A DNA stretch of 64,000 nucleotides from Methanohalobium evestigatum Z-7303 (GTDB lineage: Archaea; Halobacteriota; Methanosarcinia; Methanosarcinales; Methanosarcinaceae): NCBI RefSeq assembly GCF_000196655.1, contig NC_014253.1, forward strand, positions 1,178,001-1,242,000. The letters run 5' to 3'. The translations under genes were made by a program, and so were the position numbers. Of this stretch, positions 1,775-24,445 are shown one piece after another. Position 1 is the stretch's first letter; each line of letters opens with the position of its first letter. The notes below the pieces were generated by a model, which was not told the DNA's origin, made no database searches, and saw nothing but the letters and a program-made list of their open reading frames with translations.

Positions 1775-4700
1775 ATGTCTATCGACCCTATTGAAGCAAC
1801 AAAACAGATAACTGATAAATATTGTTCATACTTAAGTACCAATTTTTACCTAAACGACACAGAATTACAAGAAAAATTTCAAAACAAACTTGAACCTGAA
1901 ATATTTGTCAAAGGACCCATTTTGGAAGCTACACCTCCTTTTGAGAAAGGAAATACATTAAAAGACTTGATTAATGAGGGATTGTTATCTAAAAAATTCG
2001 AATTATTAGAATCAGAAGATTTGCCACTTGATAGACCTCTTTATAAACACCAGGAAAAAGCTATCAGAAATATAATAAACAAAAACAAAAATGCAGTAGT
2101 TGCTACAGGTACAGGTAGTGGAAAGACAGAAATTTTCATGATTACAATACTTAATTATCTGTTCAAACAACAAGAAAATTCAGAATTAGGTCCAGGTGTA
2201 CGTGCGCTTCTTCTATATCCCATGAATGCATTAGCTAATGACCAGTTGAAAAGAATGCGTACTCTTTTAAAAAACTGTCCTGAAATAACATTTGGTCGTT
2301 ATACAGGTGAAACTGAAGAGAATTATCGAAGTGCAAGAGACAAATATAAGCAAATGTACCATGAAGAGCCACTGGATAATGAGTTTATATCAAGAGACAA
2401 AATGAAAGAAACGCCTCCACACATTTTGCTTACCAATTACGCGATGTTAGAATATTTAATGCTGCGTCCAAGTGATCATATATTTTTCGATGGTTCATAC
2501 GCTGATGACTGGAAATTTATTGTACTCGATGAAGCTCATACATATGACGGTGCTAAAGGTATAGAAATTTCAATGTTAATAAGACGCCTCAAGGACAGGG
2601 TTGTTGGAAATATACCCGGTGAAATAAAGTGTATCGCAACAAGTGCTACTTTAGGAAACAGTGATAGTGACTTCAAGGACGTTGCTGATTTTTCCAATAA
2701 ATTGTTTGGTGAACATTTCGATGAAAATGATGTAATTGGACCCGAAAGAAAAATTGAGAATTTTGATGGTTCATGGGGAAAACCTTCGTATTTGTTGTAT
2801 CAAAGCTGGCAAGATATCATAAATCAAAATGATACAGATAAAATAACAGCTTTAATTGAATCCGGTGTCAATCATAACGTTCCTGTAGATGTACTTGAAG
2901 AATCTCGGAATAGATGTGAAGGTGACTATCAGAAATTTTTATATCATGTCTTAAAAGGTGATGACAACCTGATTTCGCTAAGGAATTTACTGGAAGAAGA
3001 ACCTCATTCTACCGATAACATAGCAAATAAAATATTCCCTGATGTTTCAAATCAAAAAAATGTTCTTGTGTCGTTAGTAGATTTATCCGTTAAAGCAAAA
3101 CACCATAGAGATGATCAATCTTTAATCCCTGCCAGATATCATCTATTTGTTAAAGCTATAGAAGGTGCCTATCTTAGTATTCTCCCTGAAAAAGAAATTT
3201 ATCTGGAAAGACGTGAATACATCGATGATGGTGATAAGAAATACCCTGTATTTGAAATTGCAAATTGCATAAATTGTGGATCTATATATTTGGTAGGTGA
3301 AACTGAAACAGGTATAAATAATAAGAAGATTTTCAAACAACCCGGACAAAAGTATCATGATGATCCAAAAAATCTAGAATATTATTTACTGATTAACAGT
3401 AATGTTGAATTGTTGCCAGATAATGAAGATGAAGAAATAATTCTGAATAATGACCAAAAAAATAACAAACATCTTATCTGTGCTGCTTGTGGATCTATTG
3501 ATAAATCTAATGTAATTAATGATATATGCGATTGTGGTAAAAACAATTATATAGAAGTTGTAAAAGTAAACTCAAAAAATGGAAATGTCCATAAATGTCC
3601 TGCTTGTACAAAGACAAGAACTAAAGGAACAGTGGTCAGACGGTTTTTACAAAGTAAAGATGCGATTGCTAGTGTTTTGGCTACTTCATTATATCAACAA
3701 ATACCTGAAAAGAAGTTATCAAATCCTGGAACAGGTGAACACACTAATATTGATGAATGGGATCCTATTAATAATTCTGTTAACAATTCGAATTCTGATA
3801 CATCTCGACAATTATTGGTTTTCTCTGATAACAGGCAAGATGCAGCTTTTTTTGCACCTTATCTTAACAGGACATACTCAAAAATATTAAGAAGAAGGTT
3901 GATTTTAAAAACACTTGATGAAAACTCAGATAAACTGGTTGATAATGATTGGTGGATAGGTGATTTGGTAAATCCGCTTAAAAAACAATTAAAACAATTC
4001 AATCTATACCCTCATTTAAGTCCTCAGGAACAAGAAAACGAAATTTGGAAGTGGTTACTTTACGAATTACTTGGAATTGACAGTGATATGGGATTACAGG
4101 GTATGGGATTTATCGGTTTTACATTGGTTAAGCCTGACAAGTGGGTGCCCCCTCCTCCTCTTAAAAAGGAACCTTGGAATTTATCTGACGATGAAATATG
4201 GATACTTTATCAGATATTACTGGACAGTTTTAGAAAATATGGAGCTATCCATTTTCCTGATGTTGTAGATCCAAAAGATGAATTCTTTTCACCAAAGAAC
4301 AACGAAAGTTATTTTAGAGAATTTGGCTCGTCTAAAACTAAAAATATTAAAAGTTGGGTTCCAAATTCAGACTCACACCTTAATACAAGGTTAGATTTTT
4401 TGATGCGGTTGTCAAAAAAATTAGGCGTAAACAAAGATAAAAAAGAACTTATTGATTTATTGAAAAATATATGGAAAACACTTGCCTTAAATAAGGCTGA
4501 TAGATCATCTTATCCTTGGTATGATTACTTTAAACCAAAAGAATTGAAAGGTGAAGGTATATCCTATCAATTGGAGCATAAATTTTGGAAAATCAATTAC
4601 ACAAAAGCACATGACACTCAGTGGTATTATTGTGATAAATGCCAAAAACTTACTCTTTTTAATTTGAAAGGGGTTTGTCCTACTTATAGATGTGAAGGTA

Positions 4701-6598
4701 CACTTAGAAAATGTGACCCAGAAGAACTCTATAAAGATAATCATTATTGGAATCTCTACTCAAACTTGGATCCTATGAAACTGATAGCAGAAGAACATAC
4801 TGCACAGTTGACTAACGAAGTTGCTGCAGATTTGCAGACCAAATTCATAAATGGTGAAGTAAATGTTTTAAGTTGTTCAACTACTTTTGAACTTGGAGTC
4901 GATGTTGGTGAACTAGAGTCAGTGTTTATGCGCAATGTACCACCATCAGCAGCAAATTATGTTCAAAGAGCAGGACGTTCTGGAAGACGTACTGATTCAA
5001 CAGCTTTTGTATTGACTTTTTGTAAACGCAGTTCTCATGATATAACACATTTTAACAACCCGATGAAACTGGTATCAGGTGAGATAAAACCGCCATTTTT
5101 TGAGATTGAAAACGAAAAGATAATAAAGAGACACATGTATTCGATAGCACTGGCCAAGTTCTGGAAAATACATAACGATAAATTCAAAAATGTGGATACG
5201 TTTTTCTTTGATAACAAAGGTCCAGAATACTTAAAAGATTACTTAGATTCAAAACCAAAGGATATACAAGACTCTTTGTATAGGATTGTACCTGAAACAT
5301 TACATGATGCAGTAGGTGTAGATGATTGGAGTTGGATTAATGGGTTGCTTGATGATAATAAAGGTGTACTCACTAAAGCTAAACATGAAGTCGAATCTGA
5401 TGTTAACAGTTTAACTCAAGTATGGGATGAAAGATATAAAGAGGGTAAACGTTCAGATTATCTATTAAGAACTATCAACACTATTAAGAAAAAACCATTG
5501 ATTAATTATTTGTCAAGCCATAATGTTCTACCCAAATATGGGTTTCCTGTGGACGTAGTAAACTTAGAGATATTCCACCATTCTGATGAAGCTAATAACT
5601 TGGAACTCAACAGAGACTTGAAAATAGCTTTATCTGAATATGCACCTAGTAATAAAATAGTTGCTGGGGGCAAGTTGTGGACCAGCCGTTATCTAAAAAA
5701 GGTTCCACATAGAGAACTACCAAAATATAAGTATGTAATTTGTAGCAATTGCCATAGATACCAGAGAGTACTTGCAAATTCTAATGAATCATTAGATCAC
5801 TGTAAATCTTGTGATGCTCCATTAACTGGAAATGAAAGGACGTTTGTGATTCCAGAATTTGGTTTCATAGTTAGTAGAAGTAAACCAGAAAAAATAGGTG
5901 AGAAGGAACCGAAAAAAAGTTTCACGACCAGAAATTATTATTCAGGTGAATCTAATAAAAATAATGAGTTAGTTTTACCTTTAAAATCTGCTATCCAATT
6001 GAGAGCGATTTCCGCTTCTCATGCTTGGATGTCAGTTATAAACCATGCAGGTTGGCAGAGTTTCAAAATTTGTAACCGATGTGGATATACTGTATTAGGT
6101 AATGATAAAGTTGATACACACGAAGATCCATGGGGTAAAACCTGCAATGGGAGGTTCATAAAATCTGATCTTGGACATGAATATATGACCGACATACTGC
6201 AAATAAACCTTGAAGGTTATTCCAATGATAACGATGAATTTTGGTTCTCTTTACTCTACGCAATTCTTGAAGGAGCAAGTTCTACGTTGGGAATAGATAG
6301 AAGTGAAATAGATGGCTGTTTATATTCTTATAAAGGTGACCCAACATCTCCTGCTATCTTATTATTCGATGATGTTCCAGGAGGTGCAGGACATGTTAAA
6401 AGGATAACCCAAGATAAAGAAACGATAAGTAATATATTAGAATCCACTTACACAAAGATGTCAAATTGTAACTGTGGAGGAGAAGATGGGAACTCTAGTT
6501 GTTATGCATGTCTTAGAAATTACAAAAACCAATTTTGCCATGATATGTTATATAGAAGCGAAGTCATGCGGTTTTTGGAAAAGTATTTCTTTGACTGA
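1775..6598 (+). CDS. Large DEAD/DEAH-box helicase with C-terminal DUF1998/MZB-like zinc region
   Basis: A 1607-residue superfamily 2 helicase. Visible motifs in order: LYKHQ (Q-motif-like, about 90-94), Walker A TGTGSGKT (111-118), DEAH (252-255), SAT (290-292), and motif VI QRAGRSGRR (1064-1072). Several CxxC pairs punctuate the protein (near 495, 570, 610, 950, 1325 and 1430), and the C-terminus has a dense Cys cluster with CYACLRNYKNQ, as in DUF1998/MZB domains of MrfA, DISARM and Druantia helicases. It probably translocates on nucleic acid using ATP. GGTG about 7 nt before the ATG can serve as ribosome binding site. It follows the unknown gene by 15 bp and precedes a DUF262 nuclease, so a phage-defence role is likely. 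The length and single-protein helicase plus DUF1998 layout fit DruE-like proteins better than DISARM, but this is not settled. Confidence 0.9.
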   Translation: MSIDPIEATKQITDKYCSYLSTNFYLNDTELQEKFQNKLEPEIFVKGPILEATPPFEKGNTLKDLINEGLLSKKFELLESEDLPLDRPLYKHQEKAIRNIINKNKNAVVATGTGSGKTEIFMITILNYLFKQQENSELGPGVRALLLYPMNALANDQLKRMRTLLKNCPEITFGRYTGETEENYRSARDKYKQMYHEEPLDNEFISRDKMKETPPHILLTNYAMLEYLMLRPSDHIFFDGSYADDWKFIVLDEAHTYDGAKGIEISMLIRRLKDRVVGNIPGEIKCIATSATLGNSDSDFKDVADFSNKLFGEHFDENDVIGPERKIENFDGSWGKPSYLLYQSWQDIINQNDTDKITALIESGVNHNVPVDVLEESRNRCEGDYQKFLYHVLKGDDNLISLRNLLEEEPHSTDNIANKIFPDVSNQKNVLVSLVDLSVKAKHHRDDQSLIPARYHLFVKAIEGAYLSILPEKEIYLERREYIDDGDKKYPVFEIANCINCGSIYLVGETETGINNKKIFKQPGQKYHDDPKNLEYYLLINSNVELLPDNEDEEIILNNDQKNNKHLICAACGSIDKSNVINDICDCGKNNYIEVVKVNSKNGNVHKCPACTKTRTKGTVVRRFLQSKDAIASVLATSLYQQIPEKKLSNPGTGEHTNIDEWDPINNSVNNSNSDTSRQLLVFSDNRQDAAFFAPYLNRTYSKILRRRLILKTLDENSDKLVDNDWWIGDLVNPLKKQLKQFNLYPHLSPQEQENEIWKWLLYELLGIDSDMGLQGMGFIGFTLVKPDKWVPPPPLKKEPWNLSDDEIWILYQILLDSFRKYGAIHFPDVVDPKDEFFSPKNNESYFREFGSSKTKNIKSWVPNSDSHLNTRLDFLMRLSKKLGVNKDKKELIDLLKNIWKTLALNKADRSSYPWYDYFKPKELKGEGISYQLEHKFWKINYTKAHDTQWYYCDKCQKLTLFNLKGVCPTYRCEGTLRKCDPEELYKDNHYWNLYSNLDPMKLIAEEHTAQLTNEVAADLQTKFINGEVNVLSCSTTFELGVDVGELESVFMRNVPPSAANYVQRAGRSGRRTDSTAFVLTFCKRSSHDITHFNNPMKLVSGEIKPPFFEIENEKIIKRHMYSIALAKFWKIHNDKFKNVDTFFFDNKGPEYLKDYLDSKPKDIQDSLYRIVPETLHDAVGVDDWSWINGLLDDNKGVLTKAKHEVESDVNSLTQVWDERYKEGKRSDYLLRTINTIKKKPLINYLSSHNVLPKYGFPVDVVNLEIFHHSDEANNLELNRDLKIALSEYAPSNKIVAGGKLWTSRYLKKVPHRELPKYKYVICSNCHRYQRVLANSNESLDHCKSCDAPLTGNERTFVIPEFGFIVSRSKPEKIGEKEPKKSFTTRNYYSGESNKNNELVLPLKSAIQLRAISASHAWMSVINHAGWQSFKICNRCGYTVLGNDKVDTHEDPWGKTCNGRFIKSDLGHEYMTDILQINLEGYSNDNDEFWFSLLYAILEGASSTLGIDRSEIDGCLYSYKGDPTSPAILLFDDVPGGAGHVKRITQDKETISNILESTYTKMSNCNCGGEDGNSSCYACLRNYKNQFCHDMLYRSEVMRFLEKYFFD

Positions 6599-6819: not shown

Positions 6820-6822
6820 TTG

Positions 6823-8832
6823 ATGATAGCTAAAGAAACCAATCTACACACGTTTTTAAGTGGACCTCAGCAATTCATCGTGCCTATTTATCAGCGTACA
6901 TATAGTTGGGATTTAAAGCACTGCAAGAAACTTTGGGATGATGTCGAAAGGCTTTTGAGTGGGCAGTATGTAAATCATTTTCTGGGTTCTTTTGTTTATA
7001 TAAACAGTGATATTTATCAGGTTTCCAGTGTACCCCAATTGCACATCATCGATGGTCAGCAGCGTTTGACTACCATTTCTCTATTACTGCAAGCTTTGAT
7101 AGATGTTCTGCAAAATCAAGATGTTAAGGTTAAAGGAGTTAGTTCTAACAAGATCAGGAATTATTACCTGATTAATACACTGGAAGAAGAGGAAGAACTG
7201 AGGTACAAATTAGTTCTAAACCGCAATGACAGCGAAACTTATACAAATTTACTGGAAAATAGAGAACTAAATGACAATTATTCACCAAACGTGTATAAAA
7301 ACTACAAATTCTTCAAGGATAAGATAGAAGGATATGAACCCGAATATTTAAGCGAGATACTTAAAACACTCCAAAAACTGATGATCGTGGATATATCGCT
7401 GAACCCTAATGAGGATAACCCGCAACTTATATTTGAAAGTCTGAACTCTACAGGTCTTGATTTGTCGCAATCCGATTTGATCAGGAACTACCTATTGATG
7501 GGTCAGGATCATCAGAGCCAGAAAGAACTGTATAATAATTACTGGTTCAAAATGGAACAAAGTTTCGGCCATGAAAAATATCAGAAAAGGTTCGATAATT
7601 TCATGAGAGATTACCTGACTATCAAATTGAGTAGAATTCCTGTATTTGATGAGATATATGAAGAGTTCAAGCAGTATTACAAAAAGAGCGGCATAACTAC
7701 TGAAGATGTTATAAACGATATATACAAGTATTCAAAACTCTACGTGAAAATCGCTTTTAATATGGAAAAAGATGAAGATTTAAACAACAAATTCAATGAA
7801 ATCACCACCTTAAAAGTTGATGTAGCATATCCTTTCCTGCTGCAAGTATATGATGACTATCAAGAAAACGTGATCGAAAAAAACGATTTCATCAAAATAC
7901 TTGACACAGTGATTTCATACGTTTTCAGAAGAGCTATATGCGGGATTCCAACAAACTCCCTTAACAAAACATTTTCTTCATTGATGGATGAAGTGGATAA
8001 AAACAAATATGTAGAAAGTGTGAAAGCTGCTTTGTCGTTGAAGAAAAGTTATAGGAAGTTCCCGTCTGACGATGAATTCTATTATAAATTGATTAGTATA
8101 GACGTGTACAATCTAAGAAACTGCAAATACCTGTTATCTAAACTGGAAAACTCGCACAAGTGGAAAATTAAAGAACCTATTAATGTAGATAGATATTCGA
8201 TTGAACACATAATGCCGCAAAATCCAAACCTTCCAGATTCTTGGAAAAAAAGATTGGGCAGAGATTATAAACAGGTTCAAAACCAGTATTTGCATACTTT
8301 AGGAAACCTGACACTAACTGTACATAATTCTGAACTGGGCGACATGGATTTTATTGAAAAGAAGGAAGCGTATGATAAAAGTCCACTGTATCTTAATGAT
8401 AGCCTGAAAGGATATGACACGTGGAATGAGGAAACCATAGTTGAACGTACAGAAGAATTAGCCAAGAAAGCACTGGAAGTATGGGCTTATCCCTACCTAG
8501 CACCTGAAACCCTTGAATTTTACAAACAACAATTTGAAAACACAGCATCAAGCTCAAAAGACTTGAATTTGCCTGAAGTTGTAAGTGAGAAAGCAAAAAA
8601 CAGCGAAATGGAGCCTGTTAATGTAAAGGGTCTGAAAACAAGGTATCCAACTGTTTATCCTGAAGATCTTGAAATAGGTGACAAGTTGATACTCGATTAT
8701 GGAGAAACTGCGGATATAGTTGATATCGAACTCAAAGGTCAGAAAACGTATGCTATAACCTTTGAACTTGATAAAACAGGAGAAATCGATATGATAAACA
8801 AATTGGAAACAACGCTGGTGACAATACTCTGA
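6823..8832 (+). CDS. DUF262/DUF1524 (GmrSD-like) nuclease
   Basis: About 670 residues. The N-terminal DUF262 domain has the IYQRTYSW motif near residue 24 and DGQQR at 77-81, the ParB-like nucleotide-binding signature of GmrS. The C-terminal DUF1524 HNH-type nuclease has EHIMPQ at 461-466 and LGNLTL at 493-498. A further ~100 residues form a small beta-rich tail. GmrSD proteins are type IV restriction enzymes that cut modified DNA using nucleotide hydrolysis; single-chain fusions are common. I chose ATG 6823; a TTG lies one codon earlier, and neither has a clear ribosome binding site. It is 220 bp from the helicase gene and likely belongs to the same defence island with its own promoter. Confidence 0.88.
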   Translation: MIAKETNLHTFLSGPQQFIVPIYQRTYSWDLKHCKKLWDDVERLLSGQYVNHFLGSFVYINSDIYQVSSVPQLHIIDGQQRLTTISLLLQALIDVLQNQDVKVKGVSSNKIRNYYLINTLEEEEELRYKLVLNRNDSETYTNLLENRELNDNYSPNVYKNYKFFKDKIEGYEPEYLSEILKTLQKLMIVDISLNPNEDNPQLIFESLNSTGLDLSQSDLIRNYLLMGQDHQSQKELYNNYWFKMEQSFGHEKYQKRFDNFMRDYLTIKLSRIPVFDEIYEEFKQYYKKSGITTEDVINDIYKYSKLYVKIAFNMEKDEDLNNKFNEITTLKVDVAYPFLLQVYDDYQENVIEKNDFIKILDTVISYVFRRAICGIPTNSLNKTFSSLMDEVDKNKYVESVKAALSLKKSYRKFPSDDEFYYKLISIDVYNLRNCKYLLSKLENSHKWKIKEPINVDRYSIEHIMPQNPNLPDSWKKRLGRDYKQVQNQYLHTLGNLTLTVHNSELGDMDFIEKKEAYDKSPLYLNDSLKGYDTWNEETIVERTEELAKKALEVWAYPYLAPETLEFYKQQFENTASSSKDLNLPEVVSEKAKNSEMEPVNVKGLKTRYPTVYPEDLEIGDKLILDYGETADIVDIELKGQKTYAITFELDKTGEIDMINKLETTLVTIL

Positions 8833-8980
8833 AAAAACTTCTATATCTAAAACACAATTTGTCAAAAGATACTGCTGAAATCTCTGGATCTACCTAAATT
8901 CCAGCCAAAATACTGACTTTAGAAAATACAGGATTCAGGATTTTTCAGCTGTTTCTTTGATAAATTATTTCAATGTTATT

Positions 8981-9286
8981 CATCGATTTATACATTTGAT
9001 AATCATACAACATTACCACAACACAACTAATGTTAAGAATTTATATGTTTGTATCATAATTTTTAATAGGTTTTTTAAGGTGATTGTTTTTGTGTGCCGG
9101 TTTATTAATACTCATTTTTCAGTTGCCAGGGTATCAAATAACGCACAAAAAAACCATACAAATTCATGTAATCAACAGCAACGAGGGAATAGGTTGTTGA
9201 TTACAGCGAGCGTGCGTTGGGGAGTTAGATGGGGGTATAGAGGAGCAGGCTAATGGGGAGGAGCCTGTTCCTCTTTTTCATTTTTG
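8981..9286 (+). ncRNA. Candidate structured RNA, element L copy 1
   Basis: A ~300-bp non-coding sequence found again at 11866-12166 and, for its 3' part, at 21985-22160. It has two hairpins. The first pairs GTAATCAACA (9168-9177) with TGTTGATTAC (9195-9204). The second pairs GAGGAGCAGGCT (9240-9251) with AGCCTGTTCCTC (9262-9273) and is followed at once by a T-run, like an intrinsic terminator. Between them lies a conserved GCG...GTTGGGGAGTT segment. The hairpins persist in the other copies, partly through G-U pairs, and no copy has a conserved reading frame, so an RNA is more likely than a protein. It shares AACCATACAAATTCATGTAA with the nuclease-gene leaders, but here the next gene is an antitoxin. 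The rest of the 8833-9383 gap shows nothing else. Confidence 0.6.
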
Positions 9287-9383
9287 ATCTAATTTTTAAT
9301 TAAAATCTAACATTTTATAGGTTAAAATTGCTATTCTGAGATATACAAAACCATTAAATATTATTCTTACATTTCTTACTTAT

Positions 9384-9632
9384 ATGACACTTATCGATTT
9401 CAGAAGCGCTAAGATTACAAAGAAAGGTCAAATATCAATACCTAAAGAAATAAGGGAACTTGAAAATTTCAAAGAAGGTTCTAAAATCGTGATACTTGCA
9501 TACGATGACAGAATAGAGTTGAGATCCATGGACCAGTTGGATGAAAAAATCTCTACAGCATTGGCAAGTGAAAAAGTCCTCAAAAAAGAATGGGATACAG
9601 AAGAAGAGGATGAAGCATGGAAAGACTTGTAA
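9384..9632 (+). CDS. AbrB/MazE-type antitoxin
   Basis: 82 residues. The N-terminal half is a SpoVT/AbrB swapped-hairpin DNA-binding domain, with the typical KITKKGQISIPKEIRE near residues 10-25. The acidic tail (EEEDEAWKDL) probably wraps the toxin. It overlaps the MazF/PemK-like gene by 16 bp, the usual translationally coupled antitoxin-toxin order. Such proteins neutralise the toxin and repress their own promoter. A TATA-like AAATATT lies about 30 bp upstream, near 9355, and there is no ribosome binding site, so the message may be nearly leaderless. Confidence 0.9.
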   Translation: MTLIDFRSAKITKKGQISIPKEIRELENFKEGSKIVILAYDDRIELRSMDQLDEKISTALASEKVLKKEWDTEEEDEAWKDL

Positions 9633-9949
9633 AAGGAGATGTTGTTGTATTACCATTCCCTTTTTCTGATATGAGTAATTCCAAAAAGAGACCTGCTTTT
9701 GTGTTAGCCAAATTACCAGGAGAAGATATAATTCTTTGTATGATTACAAGCGCGGTCAAAACTGATAATTATTCAATAACGTTAAATGATAATGATTTTG
9801 AATCTGGAACTTTACGCAAAAATAGTAACATTCGGCCAAACAGGATTTTTACCGCTGATAAATCATTAATATTATACAAGGTAGGCCACCTAAAAAATGA
9901 TAAAATAGATGAAGTGGAAAATAAGTTAGTTAACATCTTAACTGGGTAA
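9617..9949 (+). CDS. PemK/MazF-family mRNA interferase toxin
   Basis: 110 residues of the PemK/MazF fold: KGDVVVLPFPFSD at residues 6-18, RPAFVLAKL, the TSAVK strand, and the SNIRPNRIFTAD segment, all family hallmarks. These enzymes cleave mRNA at short sequence motifs. AAAGGAGATG supplies a ribosome binding site inside the antitoxin gene. The pair could act in stress response, plasmid or island maintenance, or phage abortive infection. It sits between the GmrSD-type gene and a TnpB element. Confidence 0.92.
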   Translation: MERLVKGDVVVLPFPFSDMSNSKKRPAFVLAKLPGEDIILCMITSAVKTDNYSITLNDNDFESGTLRKNSNIRPNRIFTADKSLILYKVGHLKNDKIDEVENKLVNILTG

Positions 9950-10159
9950 TTATTATTAGTAAGCCTAATAGTTTACGAAGATGGGGCAACAGGGGTACGT
10001 GAAAGCCAACGGTTTCTAATCGTACTCTTTAAATCAAAGATTAAAAGATATCTTTAAACGAAGTTTAAAGAGTGATTAAACAACCCCGTTGGTTATTGAT
10101 TTATTAACCATAATTATTTTATTCTATCAGCCCGTATCTTTTAACAGAGGCGATGATAT

Positions 10160-11164
10160 TTGATACTAACTTATAAAATCAAACATAATCGGGATTTCTC
10201 TGAAGAACTTGCAAAAGCTAAGCAAGTAGCCGAATATGGTGTCAAATATCGTACCCGTTCATCTAAAGATGTCAAGCATATCGGATTGAAATCGGCTATT
10301 TCAAACCAGATTCTCAAGAAATATGCTAAAGACAAATCCGCTAAAAAGGTAACTAGTGTTAAACTGACAATACCTAACCAGAGTGTAAAGTTAAACAGGA
10401 ATGAGAGAAAAATAAGGATAACTCCTCTTAAACTTGATTTGAGGTATTATTTTCCTGATGATTTTGAAAAAATCAACCAGATTGAAGTCGGTGAAAAATA
10501 CGTTTATGTATCGGTGACCGTACCTGAAAGAGAGCAAATCGAACCAGAGAATTATCTGGGTGTCGATTTGAATACAACCGGACATATAGCTGTGATGTCG
10601 AACCCAAAGACTGGTAAAATCTGGAAACTGGGTAAAAAAGCACAGCATATACATCTGAAATATAAAAACGACCGTAGGAAACTACAGGTCAAAGGAAAAT
10701 ACAAGAAGGTTAAACAGGTCAAGGACAGAGAGTCAAGGATTGTCAGGGATCTGAACCATAAACTCAGTTCCAAGATTGTGGAAACCGCTGCTGCCAATAA
10801 CTGTGGTATCAGGATGGAGAACCTGAAAGGTATAAGGGACTCTGCGAAATGTAAAAATACGTTCAAATACTCCCTGCACAGCTGGTCGTTCTATCAACTA
10901 CAATTTATGTTGGAATACAAAGCCAGGCTGCTTGGAGTCAAAATTGAATTTGTAGAACCCGAATATACTTCGCAGGACTGCAGTAGGTGCGGTTATCTGG
11001 GTATTAGAAATGGAGATTCATTCAAGTGTCCTCATTGTGGACACGTTGACCATGCGGACGCAAACGCGGCGTTCAATATAGCTATGCGTTCCGGTGATCA
11101 ATGCGGTGCAGACAGTGATGCATCGTACGGGAGTACTGGCGCCCCGCAAGTGGCAACGGTGTGA
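10160..11164 (+). CDS. tnpB: TnpB RNA-guided nuclease (IS200/IS605 OrfB)
   Basis: 334 residues, slightly short for TnpB but with the key parts intact. The RuvC residues are D136 (GVDLNTTG), E220 (MENLKGI) and D300 (HADANAA). A zinc ribbon is formed by C274, C277, C290 and C293. TnpB cuts DNA guided by an omega RNA made from the 3' end of its own element, helping the element persist. TTG 10160 is chosen because GAGGCGAT lies about 8 bp upstream and no ATG is in frame. The N-terminus (MILTYKIKH) matches the usual TnpB start. Confidence 0.93.
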   Translation: MILTYKIKHNRDFSEELAKAKQVAEYGVKYRTRSSKDVKHIGLKSAISNQILKKYAKDKSAKKVTSVKLTIPNQSVKLNRNERKIRITPLKLDLRYYFPDDFEKINQIEVGEKYVYVSVTVPEREQIEPENYLGVDLNTTGHIAVMSNPKTGKIWKLGKKAQHIHLKYKNDRRKLQVKGKYKKVKQVKDRESRIVRDLNHKLSSKIVETAAANNCGIRMENLKGIRDSAKCKNTFKYSLHSWSFYQLQFMLEYKARLLGVKIEFVEPEYTSQDCSRCGYLGIRNGDSFKCPHCGHVDHADANAAFNIAMRSGDQCGADSDASYGSTGAPQVATV

Positions 11165-11210
11165 CGCCCACCGACCACAGAACCCCACGGATTTATCCGT
11201 GGGTGTACGT
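11150..11210 (+). ncRNA. Right end of the TnpB element / probable omega RNA 3' part
   Basis: The end of tnpB overlaps a GC-rich stretch followed by a CCCACGG-ATTTAT-CCGTGGG hairpin near 11185-11204. This is the position and form of IS605-group right ends, from which omega RNA scaffolds are transcribed. Boundaries are inferred from the hairpin and the start of the interrupted gene. Confidence 0.55.
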
Positions 11211-11574
11211 CAGCAGATGGATTTACCTTTGTAAGTTCAACAGGAGCCTTTAGTGCAGAGGTGAATGGAAACCAAGCTACTTTTACTGTGATGGGTTCAA
11301 ACAGTATAACCTATACAGTAGAAGCACCAGATATAGAAGGAAATGAAATTTATAATTTCACGGGTGCAATCACTAATGAGAACAAAAAAACATTTGATGT
11401 AACTGGTGACACGGAGATACAGGTTTATCAAGAATTTTGGATGAAATATGACATAAATAACAATGGAGATATCGAGAAGAGCGAGGTAATGAACGCAATA
11501 AATGACTACTTTGCACAAGGATCGGACATGACCAAAGACAATGTCATGAATGTGATAAACAAATTCTTTGGTTA
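11208..11574 (+). pseudogene. 3' fragment of a dockerin-type surface protein gene
   Basis: From the edge of the TnpB element the frame runs without a stop to TAA 11572-11574. It encodes about 120 residues: a beta-rich segment (ADGFTFVSSTGAFSAEVNG) and then a dockerin/EF-hand-like repeat pair, YDINNNGDIEKSEVMNAI and MTKDNVMNVINKF. Such Ca-binding dockerin repeats end many Methanosarcinales secreted proteins. There is no start or signal peptide, and the 5' part is not found left of the element, so this is a truncated remnant. Confidence 0.75.
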
Positions 11575-11637
11575 AGGTGAGGACATGAAGGAGCAAACTG
11601 CTTCCCCTCCATAACCCTATTATTTATTGAAGGCGGA

Positions 11638-11697
11638 TACTGTTTAGTTAATGAATATTTCCCATTGATAAGGAGTATATAATTTAAGAGCTTGATG
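11638..11697 (-). mobile_element. End fragment of the IS seen at 52.9 kb
   Basis: The sequence matches 52867-52925 almost base for base. On the minus strand it encodes the last residues of that transposase (LKLYTPYQWEIFIN, then stop). Only this end remains. Confidence 0.7.
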
Positions 11698-11860
11698 GTG
11701 ATCTGGAAGCACATATCATTTCACTGAGTTGTTCCGACCCAGCACAAAGTCGTAGTCAATGGTCATTGCGATTATTAGCAGACAAGGTAGTAGAATTAGA
11801 ATACATAGATAGCATTTCATATGAATCGATAAGGAGAGTTTAAAAAAACGAACTTAAATG
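11689..11860 (+). pseudogene. IS630-family transposase fragment
   Basis: The plus strand encodes LEAHIISLSCSDPAQSRSQW and then SLRLLADKVVELEYIDSISY, the N-terminal helix-turn-helix region of IS630-type transposases. It ends in an in-frame TAA just before KNELK, where the family normally reads LKKNELKP. There is no start and no catalytic domain. It abuts the previous IS scrap and element L copy 2. Confidence 0.75.
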
Positions 11861-11865
11861 CTATC

Positions 11866-12166
11866 TATCAATTTATACGTTTGATAACCATACAACAGCA
11901 CCACAACAAACTAATTTTAAGAATTTATGTTTATATGTCATAATTTTTAACAGGTTTTTTCAGGTAATTGTTTTTTTGTGCCGGTTTATTAATAATTATT
12001 TTTCATTTGCCTGGGTATCAAATAACGCATAAAAATAACCATACATATCCATGTAATCAACAGCAATAGGTAAATGTTGATTGTAAGAGCGTGTGTTGGG
12101 GAGTTCATTGGGGGTATGGAGGAGCAGGCTAACGGGAAAGTGCCTGTCCCTCTTTTTTATTTTTTC
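11866..12166 (+). ncRNA. Candidate structured RNA, element L copy 2
   Basis: Second copy of the element at 8981-9286. Hairpin 1 pairs GTAATCAACA (from 12053) with TGTTGATTGT (to 12084), keeping the stem through G-U pairs. Hairpin 2 pairs GAGGAGCAGGC with GCCTGTCCCTC (about 12120-12152) and ends in a long T-run. The intervening GTGTTGGGGAGTT is conserved. It lies directly upstream of the first nuclease cassette. The terminator-like end suggests a separate small RNA or an attenuated leader rather than simple read-through. Confidence 0.6.
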
Positions 12167-12199
12167 TATGTTGAGTACTTGCTATGACTTGATTTTTCC

Positions 12200-12305
12200 A
12201 GTTGCTTCTGTTCTCCAAACTACTAGAAAAAATAACCATACAAATCCATGTAATTAACGGCAACAGGAAACTAGCTGTTAATTGCAAGAGCGGGTAATTG
12301 TAGAA
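12200..12305 (+). promoter_or_regulatory. Leader motif with hairpin before cassette gene A
   Basis: Contains the shared string ATAACCATACAAATCCATGT, then a hairpin pairing GTAATTAAC (12250-12258) with GTTAATTGC (12277-12285), then AGAGCGGGTAATTG. The second cassette has the same block at 22200-22300, where the stem is GCAATTAAC/GTTAATTGC, so the pairing is preserved despite the base change. It resembles hairpin 1 of element L without the terminator hairpin. Confidence 0.5.
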
Positions 12306-12397
12306 AATATAGAATCCTGAGATCTTTTGAAATTAACAGGAAAAAGAGCTGCAGGACCTATTACCCAGATTTAAATCGAATATAAAGGAGGATTAAA

Positions 12398-13144
12398 TTG
12401 GAACAAGTAGAAAATAAAGAAAAATTAAAAGATATAACTGTAAAACCGCTGATAGAAAGTATGCTATCGACAGACGATCACAGCACCAAAAAAGATATTG
12501 AAGGTTGCCTGGTGGGTCTGGAACATCTGGCAGCAGATACAATCATTGAACACCTGTATCATGATGGATACAATCAGGACCTAGAAAATATCCTCATACA
12601 GATAGGACAACCGGCTGTTGATTGTCTGTCAGAAAAGATAAACTGTTACCATAATAAATCTGGAGACATCCAGCAGATGCAGTTGATACTGGACCGCATT
12701 GAAGATTGCATCGAAAATCCAGATAGCTCCGATTCGAAGAACCAGAATCAAAAGGTACAATCGTCTGCTTCATCTGGTAATTCTACGCAGAATAATAACC
12801 TGGACAAGATGTCATGGAAAGAACTCGAAGAACTTCTCGTGTCGATGTACAGAGATAAAGGATATCTGGTTGAAAGTGTTGGAACAAAAGACATGGGTGC
12901 GGATTTTGTCATAACTGAATACGGAGTCGAGAGGACCGCGGTTCTTATAAAACATCTAAACCAAGGTCAAAAAGTCACGAGAAATGCTGTTCAGGAAGTT
13001 GCTGCAGCAAAAGACTACTACCAGTGTAACGGTGCCATGGTTATTTCCAACCAGGAGTTCACACAGAAGGCACTAATACTGGCGGAATCGAACGATGTAT
13101 CTCTAATTGGCAGAGAACAGCTGGAAGACATGGTCAATCAGTAA
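12398..13144 (+). CDS. HEAT-like plus Mrr-type nuclease, cassette 1 gene A
   Basis: 248 residues. The first ~100 form HEAT/armadillo-like helices (LIQIGQPAVDCLSEKI). A Gln/Ser/Asn-rich linker follows, then a C-terminal Mrr-like PD-(D/E)xK domain (about 140-248) with GAD (D169), E178 and IK (K185). The usual QxK is LIK here, so the Gln is replaced but the Lys kept. The ending VQEVAAAKDYYQCNGAMVIS is typical of Mrr_cat. The TTG start follows AAAGGAGGATTAAA, a strong ribosome binding site. Mrr proteins cut methylated or foreign DNA. It is about 80% identical by eye to gene A of the second cassette at 22397. Confidence 0.85.
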   Translation: MEQVENKEKLKDITVKPLIESMLSTDDHSTKKDIEGCLVGLEHLAADTIIEHLYHDGYNQDLENILIQIGQPAVDCLSEKINCYHNKSGDIQQMQLILDRIEDCIENPDSSDSKNQNQKVQSSASSGNSTQNNNLDKMSWKELEELLVSMYRDKGYLVESVGTKDMGADFVITEYGVERTAVLIKHLNQGQKVTRNAVQEVAAAKDYYQCNGAMVISNQEFTQKALILAESNDVSLIGREQLEDMVNQ

Positions 13145-13191
13145 TGATACAATATTAGATCAATTTCCGGTTTTAGGCCAGTGTTGTTTGG

Positions 13192-13220
13192 TCCATGCTC
13201 TTGCATGGATTTTATTTTTT
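13192..13220 (+). terminator. Hairpin plus T-run between genes A and B
   Basis: TCCATGC pairs with GCATGGA, followed by TTTTATTTTTT. The same hairpin sits at the same place in cassette 2. Confidence 0.6.
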
Positions 13221-13242
13221 CTGGCTTTGTAATATTAATTTT

Positions 13243-13312
13243 CTCAGTTGTTTTTGCTCTCGAAATTACTGCACAAAAAACCATACAATCCATTGAATTT
13301 TATAAAAATCTA
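13243..13312 (+). promoter_or_regulatory. Leader motif before cassette gene B
   Basis: Carries GTTGTTTTTGCTCTC and then ACAAAAAACCATACAATCCA, the string shared by all six cassette leaders. There is no long stem here, unlike the gene A leader. Confidence 0.45.
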
Positions 13313-13335
13313 AATAAAAAATCGGAGGTAAAAAA

Positions 13336-14502
13336 GTGGACAAAATTGAAAAGATATCCATATAGCCACTTATAAAAGAATTAACTGATGAAAATAACGA
13401 TATGGAGGACAAAGAAGAAATCAAAGAAATTCTTGTTAATCATGGAGAAAAAGCAGTAGAACCTCTTATTAATTGTCTCAAGGAAACATACCCGAATTTG
13501 GATATAAAACAAACATTGGCTGGTATCGGAGAACCTGCAGTTGCACGGGTTATAGAAGAAATGAGAAAAGATGATAATCCAGAGGAATTGGTACTGGAAC
13601 TTTTAAATATTCTTGAGGATACAGATTCTGCAGCACTATATGTATTCCACGAACTTAGAGACAAACTGCCAAAATTAGATATGCTTCATCACAGGAATAT
13701 CATATTTACTTACAAACTAATATTAAATAGGCACAGCAGGTATACTGCAAATCTGATTATTGATTATTTGCATTATGATGAAAATGAAATAATCAAAAAA
13801 CCTTCACAAGTCGTGTATTTCCGGGAACCTGTGAAAGAAGAACGCGATATCCTCATAGAAATATTCCAGGAGTTAGAACCTGAAGCAATCGACCCGATTA
13901 TTAATGGTCTCAATGAAAATTGGAGTCCTGAAATAAAGGAACTGCTGGAAGATATGTTGAAAGACGAAGATTTTGAAGACCGACTTCAAGAATACCTAAA
14001 AAATACAGAAGACCTTGAGTTCAAATGTCAAATCGCTGAAATAATCCATGAAATAGGGAATACACCATTAAAAGATCTATTGCAACTTATGAACAGCGAT
14101 GTTGAGGATGAAGAATTACCCGACAATCCGGATAAACTGACACCTAAACAACTTGAGCTGGCAGTATGCAAAATCTACAGGGAGAAAGGGTATTACGCTA
14201 TTAGAACTAAAAATACCAATGATAAAGACCAGGGTGCAGATGTAATATTGACCAAACTTGGATCAGAACGTGTTGCTGTGCAGGTTAAACAATCTGGTTC
14301 AAAAGTGGGAAACAGTGCAGTTCAGGAAGTGGTTGCTTCAGTGCGGTATTATCTTTGCAATTCAGCGATGGTGGTTACAAATAATTACTACACACCTGAA
14401 GCTGTTGACCTTGCAAATGCAAATGATGTTAAATTGGTAAACAGAGATGAACTTCGAAACCTGATAATATCGCATTACAAACTGTTTAAAAAAGAAGATT
14501 AA
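13336..14502 (+). CDS. HEAT-repeat Mrr-type nuclease with in-frame TAG, cassette 1 gene B
   Basis: Read from GTG 13336, preceded by a strong GGAGGTAAAAAA ribosome binding site, the frame gives MDKIEKISI, TAG at 13363-13365, then PLIKELTDENND and on to 14502 (389 codons). Gene A reads KDITVKPLIES at the same place, so the TAG falls on a lysine codon. If TAG is read as pyrrolysine the whole gene is intact; if not, translation could start only at ATG 13402, which has no good ribosome binding site. HEAT/PBS-lyase-like repeats (LAGIGEPAVARVIEEM) span about 25-260. The C-terminal Mrr domain has GAD (D302) and canonical QVK (Q316, K318). Its counterpart at 23324 has no TAG. Confidence 0.8.
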
Positions 14503-14624
14503 ACAATTGATTCAATCTATGGTAGATAATATTAACCATTGGTTGTTTCGATGTGGTTTTTGATCTATTTCCATGTTTTTCTTTTTTCATTAATAAATAT
14601 TTAATACAGTTTTTCGATTCCCGG

Positions 14625-14690
14625 AGATTTTGCTCTTTTTCAGAATTCAGCGATAAAAGGACCATACGAACTCATGTAATTTATTTACTC
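14625..14690 (+). promoter_or_regulatory. Leader motif before cassette gene C
   Basis: GATTTTGCTCTTTTTCAG, then AGGACCATACGAACTCATGT, matching the other cassette leaders. Ends about 15 bp before the GGAGGTTAAAG ribosome binding site. Confidence 0.45.
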
Positions 14691-14715
14691 AGGAATAAAA
14701 ATTGGAGGTTAAAGT

Positions 14716-15075
14716 TTGAAAACAAATTATCAGAATTTTGAATTAATATCCTGGATAAAATTGCTGCAGGAAGTGGAAATATACTATAAAACTAGAGGAT
14801 ATCATGTCGAAAGAACTCCAGGTACAGATTCTGGAGCAGACCTCATAGCAACTTTTTTAGGTGTCGAAAAGGTAGCTGTTAAGATATGTTCCAGAGGTTT
14901 TGTTTTATTTTCATCCGTCCATGAAGTTTCTTATGCTAAAATCTATTATCGATGCGACAGAGCTGAAGTAATAAGCTTGGGATTTTTCAGCAAAGACGCA
15001 GAATTACTGGCTAAAATTATCGATGTAAAATTGATAAATAGATATGAGCTTGAAAAGATTATTGAAAAATATTGA
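14716..15075 (+). CDS. Stand-alone degenerate Mrr domain, cassette 1 gene C
   Basis: 119 residues consisting of an Mrr-like domain alone. The acidic residue is kept (SGAD, D42), but the QVK motif has become VKIC (K56, I57, C58), so the catalytic Lys and Gln are both lost. The same change occurs in the cassette 2 copy. The fold otherwise looks intact: VHEVSYAKIYYRCDRAEVIS and the DVKLINRYELEKI end. It probably binds DNA or a partner nuclease without cutting. The TTG start has GGAGGTTAAAGT upstream. It could regulate or protect against genes A and B; that is inference. Confidence 0.8.
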   Translation: MKTNYQNFELISWIKLLQEVEIYYKTRGYHVERTPGTDSGADLIATFLGVEKVAVKICSRGFVLFSSVHEVSYAKIYYRCDRAEVISLGFFSKDAELLAKIIDVKLINRYELEKIIEKY

Positions 15076-23323: not shown

Positions 23324-24445
23324 TTGAAATCTAACAATTATAGCAAAGAAGAAATTATATCTTCTTTAGTAGAAAATCTATTGATTACTGAGGAATATAA
23401 TGAGAAAGAAGAAACTAAAGACATACTTGTAGGATTTGGAGAAAAATCAATCAAACCATTGGTTGAAAAATTAGGAGAAGATGTTGGTATATCGAATGAA
23501 AGGGAGATAGGAAGCGTTCTGAAAAGAATAGGCATGCCATGTATACCGTACATCATGAATGAACTTTATAATAAATACTTGCCAAATAGATACTTCACTG
23601 CTTCATTAACTGTTTCAGAAATCATAGAAAGCATCGGCGAACCAGCTGTACCTTATCTGATTGATTACATCTGCGAATATCAAGTACTTGACGGAAGAGA
23701 AGAAAGTTGTCGCAGATTGAGAGAATTCGTATCCTTGCATGAAGAAAAAGCTGTAGATTGTGTGTTAAAAAGATTAAGCAGAGAGTATCTTAATGAAGAC
23801 TGCTGGCAAGAATTGACTAGTATCTTGGTATTCTTGGGAGAAATTTCAGTAGAAAAATTGTTCCAGGGTATAATAAACATCAATCATAAACACATAGACT
23901 ACGATGATGCTGTAAATATTATAACTGAACATGATAATGATGACGCAAAAAATGTCTTGAACAGGTACTTAAAATATGGATCATATGAAGAAAAGCTAAT
24001 TGCAGCCAGAATCCTGGACAAATTCAATGATACTGATGCAGAAAGTACTATACAGGTTCTTTATAACGAACCAGAATCGAAAATGTTGTACGACCTGTAT
24101 AATATATCCTGGGAAGAACTAGAATTAGGCTTGATGAACCTATATGAAAAAATGGGTTATAAAGTGGAAAAAACTCCAAAAAATAGCGACTATGGAGCTG
24201 ACTTTATAGCAACTCAGTGGGGGAGTGAGAGAATAGCGGTGCAGGTAAAGCACCTAAATAATACAACATCGCCTAGTGCAGTTCAGGAAGTTGTTGCAGC
24301 AAAGATGTATTATATATGTTCTAAAGCAGAAGTCGTGAGCACAAACAATTTCAGCAAACAAGCAAAGAACCTGGCAGATATAACAGGAGTAAATCTCATC
24401 GACAGAGATAAGCTCAAATGGTTAATTGAAAAATATAATTGGTAA
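23324..24445 (+). CDS. HEAT-repeat Mrr-type nuclease, cassette 2 gene B
   Basis: 373 residues. The N-terminal ~270 residues are HEAT-like repeats (LKRIGMPCIPYIMNEL, IIESIGEPAVPYLIDYI, EEKAVDCVLKRL). The C-terminal Mrr domain has YGAD (D293), QVK (Q307, K309), and VQEVVAAKMYYICSKAEVVS. It is intact, with a TTG start behind TGGAGGTAAAAAA and no in-frame stop, unlike gene B of cassette 1. The repeat region differs much more from cassette 1 gene B than the Mrr domain does, suggesting that the sensing part evolves faster than the nuclease. Confidence 0.87.
   Translation: MKSNNYSKEEIISSLVENLLITEEYNEKEETKDILVGFGEKSIKPLVEKLGEDVGISNEREIGSVLKRIGMPCIPYIMNELYNKYLPNRYFTASLTVSEIIESIGEPAVPYLIDYICEYQVLDGREESCRRLREFVSLHEEKAVDCVLKRLSREYLNEDCWQELTSILVFLGEISVEKLFQGIININHKHIDYDDAVNIITEHDNDDAKNVLNRYLKYGSYEEKLIAARILDKFNDTDAESTIQVLYNEPESKMLYDLYNISWEELELGLMNLYEKMGYKVEKTPKNSDYGADFIATQWGSERIAVQVKHLNNTTSPSAVQEVVAAKMYYICSKAEVVSTNNFSKQAKNLADITGVNLIDRDKLKWLIEKYNW

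What the first reader, a model, noticed from the sequence alone, without database searches (positions are those of the whole stretch)
13336..13402. In-frame TAG at a lysine position: candidate pyrrolysine codon in a nuclease gene
The gene has a strong ribosome binding site and GTG start, nine sense codons, TAG, then continuous coding. The flanks ISI-stop-PLI align with ITV-K-PLI of cassette gene A. Methanosarcinaceae decode TAG as pyrrolysine, a lysine derivative. This would be a pyrrolysine outside methylamine methyltransferases, and in a defence-type protein; read-through would couple nuclease level to pyrrolysine supply.
Basis: partly seen in the sequence, partly recalled or inferred. Interest (0 to 1): 0.7.

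Follow-up and report, generated by a model that had tools for sequence, protein, structure and literature searches.

The report
In-frame TAG in archaeal restriction-type nuclease
A restriction-type nuclease gene of the methane-making archaeon Methanohalobium carries a 'stop' codon ten codons in that is almost certainly translated, most likely as the rare amino acid pyrrolysine; this looks like one case of a genome that reads TAG as an amino acid in many genes, not a special switch.

Summary
In detail: SD GGAGGT, GTG 13336, nine codons, TAG 13363-13365, then an open frame to TAA 14502. Read-through is strongly supported. Two homologues at 77-82% aa identity, one on the same organism's 164-kb plasmid and one in a second Methanohalobium species, keep the TAG at the same codon, the SD and the start. 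All three copies are 388 codons, align without gaps and are under purifying selection (dN/dS about 0.2). The rival start, ATG 13402, is ATG/ACA/ATA in the three. No start codon after codon 1 is shared before codon 145. The residues around the TAG form one HEAT repeat, which recurs later in the same protein with Glu or Asp at that place. The genome has complete pylTS and pylBCD. So pyrrolysine is the likely residue, though no peptide has been seen. The site is a charged position (K or E), not specifically lysine. TAG also sits inside CO dehydrogenase, GmrSD, IscB-like and histidine-kinase genes here, and rarely terminates genes (30 of 843). Nothing shows that TAG itself is selected or regulatory. 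Verdict: a new member of a known kind.

The parts
13276..13335 (+). 5' leader, A+T-rich, ending in the SD; conserved in the plasmid and sister copies and shared with the paralogue at 23324
13324..13329 (+). Shine-Dalgarno GGAGGT
   Evidence: conserved in all three copies
13336..13338 (+). GTG start codon (GTG on the plasmid, ATG in the sister)
   Evidence: the only start-codon position shared by all three before codon 145
13336..14502 (+). CDS of the HEAT-repeat + Mrr nuclease, 388 codons with TAG read as sense
   Evidence: dN/dS about 0.2, no gaps, no TAA or TGA in any copy
13354..13488 (+). first HEAT-like repeat (residues 7-51), whose first helix contains codon 10 (TAG)
   Evidence: internal repeats; alphaRep matches starting at residues 7-8; low-confidence AF2 helix 9-16
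13363..13365 (+). in-frame TAG, codon 10, candidate pyrrolysine
   Evidence: conserved in the plasmid and sister-species copies
13402..13404 (+). ATG of the standard-code ORF; not the conserved start
   Evidence: ACA and ATA in the other two copies; no SD upstream
14131..14466 (+). Mrr_cat nuclease domain with conserved D302 and QVK316-318
   Evidence: (E=8e-25)
12398..13144 (+). upstream partner gene A (short N-terminal region + Mrr_cat); K (AAA) at the position of the TAG
14716..15075 (+). downstream stand-alone Mrr_cat gene C
23324..24445 (+). distant paralogue B' (29% aa), similar leader and SD, TTG start, no in-frame stop

Best explanation
The gene starts at GTG 13336 and encodes a 388-residue HEAT-repeat + Mrr-type nuclease. 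Its tenth codon, UAG, is decoded by tRNA-Pyl(CUA) charged by PylS, most likely inserting pyrrolysine at a charged position at the start of the first HEAT helix. Methanohalobium treats UAG largely as a sense codon: UAG rarely terminates genes, and point mutations to UAG from CAG, GAG or TTG are tolerated in several ordinary, mobile and defence genes. The codon here probably arose by such drift from a Lys, Glu or Gln codon before the chromosomal and plasmid copies and the two species diverged. Shown by sequence: the conserved TAG, the conserved start, purifying selection on the whole frame, and a complete pyl gene set. Inferred: that the inserted residue is Pyl, that the protein is made at useful levels, and that the origin was neutral.
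For: Three copies keep TAG at codon 10, the SD and the start, align over 388 codons without gaps, and show dN/dS 0.125/0.642, 0.106/0.436 and 0.118/0.602. Codon 23 (ATG 13402) is ATG/ACA/ATA; after codon 1 the first start-codon position common to all three is codon 145. ISI-TAG-PLIKEL recurs as KAV-E-PLINCL and EAI-D-PIINGL in the same protein, and designed alphaRep repeats align from residues 7-8, across the TAG. pylS (698 bits, cut-off 550), PylB, PylC and PylD over their NCBIfam cut-offs; tRNA-Pyl(cta); the sister species also has pylS and tRNA-Pyl. Positive control: two mtmB copies with TAG in GMGL-O-GPETS. TAG ends 30 of 843 ORFs of 80 aa or more. Among in-frame stops with coding-like sequence on both sides, 4 of 7 TAG cases lie within one protein, against 0 of 16 TAA/TGA cases tested (p=0.004).
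Against: No peptide or ribosome data. Only three orthologous copies exist in what was searched, and the sister is a metagenome-assembled genome. The AF2 model is weak (mean pLDDT 64). UAG could in principle be read by a near-cognate tRNA, or only rarely.
Confidence: 0.86

Rival explanations
1. The true start is ATG 13402 (or another downstream start) and the GTG-TAG stretch is untranslated or a nine-residue leader peptide.
For: The standard-code ORF begins there.
Against: ATG 13402 is ACA in the plasmid copy and ATA in the sister; no SD upstream; no start codon common to all three between codon 1 and codon 145. Codons 11-22 are part of the first HEAT repeat.
Confidence: 0.05
2. Regulated Pyl gate: UAG at codon 10 is kept by selection so that the nuclease is made only when pyrrolysine is plentiful (growth on methylamines).
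For: The TAG is early, so termination would leave only nine residues; it is conserved in three copies and two species. In the bacterium Acetohalobium UAG decoding depends on the carbon source (reported in PMC8211752).
Against: Retention is not improbable under neutrality (P about 0.14; 71% of residues are identical in all three anyway). The sister gene gained a second TAG at codon 299. TAGs lie at scattered positions in unrelated genes. No strong downstream RNA structure.
Confidence: 0.08
3. Pseudogenes: the TAG is an inactivating nonsense mutation inherited by all copies.
For: Some TAG cases elsewhere (for instance CO dehydrogenase, where the 97% identical sister has TTG) could be recent nonsense mutations.
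Against: dN/dS about 0.2 over 388 codons without gaps or other stops, with the Mrr residues D302 and QVK intact. Single-protein interruptions were seen for TAG and not among the 16 TAA/TGA cases tested.
Confidence: 0.03

Closest known systems
Methylamine methyltransferases MtmB/MtbB/MttB (in-frame UAG = Pyl)
   Same: In-frame UAG, conserved across copies, read through in a genome with pylTSBCD; mtmB of this genome has it
   Different: There Pyl is catalytic and at an invariant site; here it is at a variable charged position of a HEAT repeat
Thg1, transposases and a TetR regulator with UAG in Methanosarcina (PMC8211752, PMC3639795)
   Same: UAG outside methyltransferases; for Thg1 a neutral origin was proposed (title of Heinemann et al. 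2009, cited in PMC8211752)
   Different: Different protein family; here the TAG is shared by two species and by plasmid and chromosome copies
Archaeal 'Pyl code' (Kivenson et al., Science 2025; recalled from memory, not in the library searched)
   Same: TAG used as a sense codon across many proteins of some archaea
   Different: Could not check whether Methanohalobium or this gene is listed there
Mrr-type restriction endonucleases (Pfam PF04471; C-terminal part of ZorD1, PADLOC)
   Same: Mrr_cat domain with D...QxK; near other defence-type genes
   Different: HEAT-repeat N-terminus; UAG at codon 10

Membership tests
Pyrrolysine-encoding gene | Genome encodes tRNA-Pyl(CUA), PylS and PylBCD | tested here: met
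Pyrrolysine-encoding gene | In-frame UAG with conserved coding on both sides | tested here: met
Pyrrolysine-encoding gene | UAG conserved at the same codon in orthologues from Pyl-decoding organisms | tested here: met
   plasmid paralogue and sister species
Pyrrolysine-encoding gene | Homologues with a sense codon at the site | tested here: met
   gene A AAA (K); C1:161795 GAA (E); only distant paralogues
Pyrrolysine-encoding gene | Pyl detected in the protein | not testable with these tools
   needs mass spectrometry
Pyrrolysine-encoding gene | PYLIS-like structure after UAG (not required, and so not defining, according to PMC9499178) | tested here: not met
   consensus fold only -1.9 kcal/mol on three sequences
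Genome-wide use of UAG as sense codon (Pyl code) | UAG strongly depleted as terminator | tested here: met
   30 of 843 ORFs in 913 kb
Genome-wide use of UAG as sense codon (Pyl code) | UAG inside many unrelated conserved proteins | tested here: met
   CODH, GmrSD, histidine kinase, IscB-like, HEAT-Mrr; sample of 38% of the genome
Genome-wide use of UAG as sense codon (Pyl code) | All UAGs decoded as Pyl in the proteome | not testable with these tools
   needs proteomics
Mrr-type nuclease | Mrr_cat domain with catalytic D...QxK | tested here: met
   E=8e-25, D302 and QVK316-318 conserved
Mrr-type nuclease | Nuclease or restriction activity | not testable with these tools
   biochemical assay needed

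The most novel reading that the evidence does not exclude
The early UAG is a selected gate on a defence nuclease: the enzyme is made only in pyrrolysine-replete cells, and the plasmid-borne copy can work only in hosts that decode UAG, tying a mobile restriction gene to the Pyl genetic code.
Probability: 0.08. Interest if true: 0.75.

Novelty: new member of a known kind. Interest (0 to 1): 0.42.

Why it matters
It adds nuclease genes (HEAT-Mrr, GmrSD, IscB-like) to the list of probable pyrrolysine proteins and supports the view that some Methanosarcinaceae read UAG as an ordinary sense codon. Standard annotation will start this gene at the wrong ATG or split such genes in two. It also means that these plasmid-borne defence genes could be expressed only in hosts that decode UAG.

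Tried and rejected
Downstream start at ATG 13402: rejected (ACA and ATA in the other copies, no SD). Pseudogene: rejected (dN/dS, no gaps, TAA/TGA control). TAG kept by selection: no support (neutral P about 0.14). PYLIS element: no strong structure. More orthologues: none among 111 family genomes beyond the genus, in genome contigs beyond the sister, in viral contigs or in plasmids, where the tool says that own records may be left out. My first alignment of L003 used the wrong strand and was discarded. AF2 with three sequences gave a weak model, used only as mild support. The Pyl-code paper was not found in the library.

Full report
OBSERVATION. The sequence is as described: SD GGAGGT at 13324-13329, GTG 13336, codons DKIEKISI, TAG 13363-13365, PLIKELTDENND, ATG 13402, open to TAA 14502. 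The standard-code ORF starts at 13402. Pfam finds Mrr_cat (E=8e-25) at the C-terminus and a weak HEAT match.

THE GENOME. The window lies at C1:1178001-1242000 of a genome with contigs of 2,242,317 and 163,915 bases. The one other genome of its genus that carries this gene is a record titled Methanohalobium sp. (NZ_JAHENT010000097.1), and the contig sizes match M. evestigatum Z-7303 from memory. pylS with tRNA-Pyl(cta) is at C1 about 298.8-300.3 kb and pylBCD at C1:894223-897219; PylS, PylB, PylC and PylD pass their NCBIfam cut-offs. The split pylTS / pylBCD layout is the one reported for M. evestigatum (PMC9499178). The sister has pylS and tRNA-Pyl too.

CONSERVATION OF THE TAG. A search of 111 family genomes finds two full-length close relatives: a copy on the 164-kb contig (77% aa) and one in the sister species (82%), both with TAG inside. 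At codon level all three read GTG/GTG/ATG, (D/N)KIEKISI, TAG, PLI(K/K/Q)EL. The 388 codons align without gaps; dN/dS is 0.125/0.642 (window-plasmid), 0.106/0.436 (window-sister) and 0.118/0.602 (plasmid-sister). The window and sister copies are closest, which suggests that the plasmid copy split off earlier and that the TAG is older than the species split. The ATG at 13402 is ACA in the plasmid copy and ATA in the sister, and no start codon after codon 1 is common to all three before codon 145. The leader and SD are conserved and shared with paralogue B' at 23324.

WHAT THE CODON REPLACES. ISI-TAG-PLIKEL is a HEAT-repeat motif that recurs in the same protein as KAV-E-PLINCL and EAI-D-PIINGL. 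Designed alphaRep repeats (RAVEPLIKALKDED) align from residues 7-8 onwards, across the TAG; single-repeat scores are low, and the significance comes from the summed repeats. Gene A has AAA (K) at this place and the paralogue at C1:161795 has GAA (E). The ancestral residue was therefore probably charged, K or E. A low-confidence AF2 model has helix 9-16 there.

IS IT SPECIAL? In a 913-kb sample (38% of the genome) TAG ends 30 of 843 ORFs of 80 aa or more. Seven TAG-interrupted ORFs have coding-like composition on both sides. Four of these are single proteins: mtmB (the known Pyl gene), CO dehydrogenase (C1:1841650-1843551, TAG codon 86, TTG in the 97% identical sister), GmrSD on the plasmid (TAG codon 177, GAG in the window homologue 6820-8832) and a plasmid histidine kinase (TAG codon 453, TCT in the 88% identical chromosomal copy). 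Of the 17 TAA or TGA cases that passed the same filter, 16 were scanned and none has a Pfam domain across the stop; they look like neighbouring genes in the same frame. Fisher p = 0.004. A cruder count, 7 of 30 TAG against 17 of 813 TAA+TGA, gives p = 8e-6. An IscB-like gene outside that filter also has a TAG (codon 174; CAG in a 99% identical copy), and another copy has a different TAG (codon 324). The sister HEAT-Mrr gene gained a second TAG at codon 299 (CAG in the plasmid copy). The best reading is that UAG is largely a sense codon here and enters genes by point mutation. Some individual cases could still be nonsense mutations or sequencing errors.

FUNCTION. The protein is a HEAT-repeat + Mrr nuclease with D302 and Q316-V-K318 conserved. 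PADLOC relates its C-terminus to ZorD1 and PDC-S02. It sits with Mrr genes A and C, a DruE-like helicase and GmrSD. A defence role is inferred from this context, not shown.

REGULATION. Nothing points to a selected switch: under full neutrality the chance that codon 10 stays unchanged across the three copies is about 0.14, and the downstream region folds weakly (-1.9 kcal/mol). Regulation is not excluded.

NOVELTY. Pyl outside methyltransferases is known (PMC8211752; PMC3639795, a screen that included the M. evestigatum chromosome; the parts read do not mention this gene). Genome-wide Pyl decoding in archaea was, as I recall, published in 2025 (Kivenson et al.); I could not check it here. The conserved TAG in this nuclease and the further TAG genes listed here are therefore new members of a known kind.

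Noticed in passing
G000 C1:1841650-1843551 (L083 11650-13551, - strand): CO dehydrogenase/prismane gene with an in-frame TAG at codon 86; the 97% identical sister gene has TTG and other relatives have Leu there.
   Followed up: partly
G000 C2:60343-62010 (L037 15343-17010, - strand): Plasmid GmrSD-type restriction gene with TAG at codon 177; the window homologue 6820-8832 has GAG.
   Followed up: partly
G000 C1:774839-776059 and C1:1287150-1288376: Two of five closely similar IscB-like (RRXRR+HNH) copies carry an in-frame TAG, at different codons (174 and 324).
   Followed up: partly
G000 C2:84276-86486 (L086): PAS histidine kinase with TAG at codon 453; the 88% identical chromosomal copy has TCT.
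   Followed up: partly
G000 C1:1469862-1471208 (L065): Third MtmB homologue without any TAG, with Met at the pyrrolysine site (GLAL-M-GPGTP).
   Followed up: no
L007 about 2395-2397 (codon 299): The sister-species HEAT-Mrr gene has a second in-frame TAG beside the Mrr catalytic motif (CAG in the plasmid copy).
   Followed up: partly
window 6820-15075 and G000 C2:55-62 kb: A block of defence-type genes (GmrSD, a 110-aa gene at 9617 and its plasmid copy, Mrr genes A and B) is present on both chromosome and plasmid, in diverged copies (GmrSD 70% aa, gene B 77% aa).
   Followed up: no
window 1775-6598: DruE-like helicase (PADLOC E=3e-194) upstream of GmrSD: defence island.
   Followed up: no
L072 10166-11152 (- strand), C1 about 580 kb: 329-residue ORF without a Pfam match, TAG at codon 258, coding-like on both sides.
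   Followed up: no
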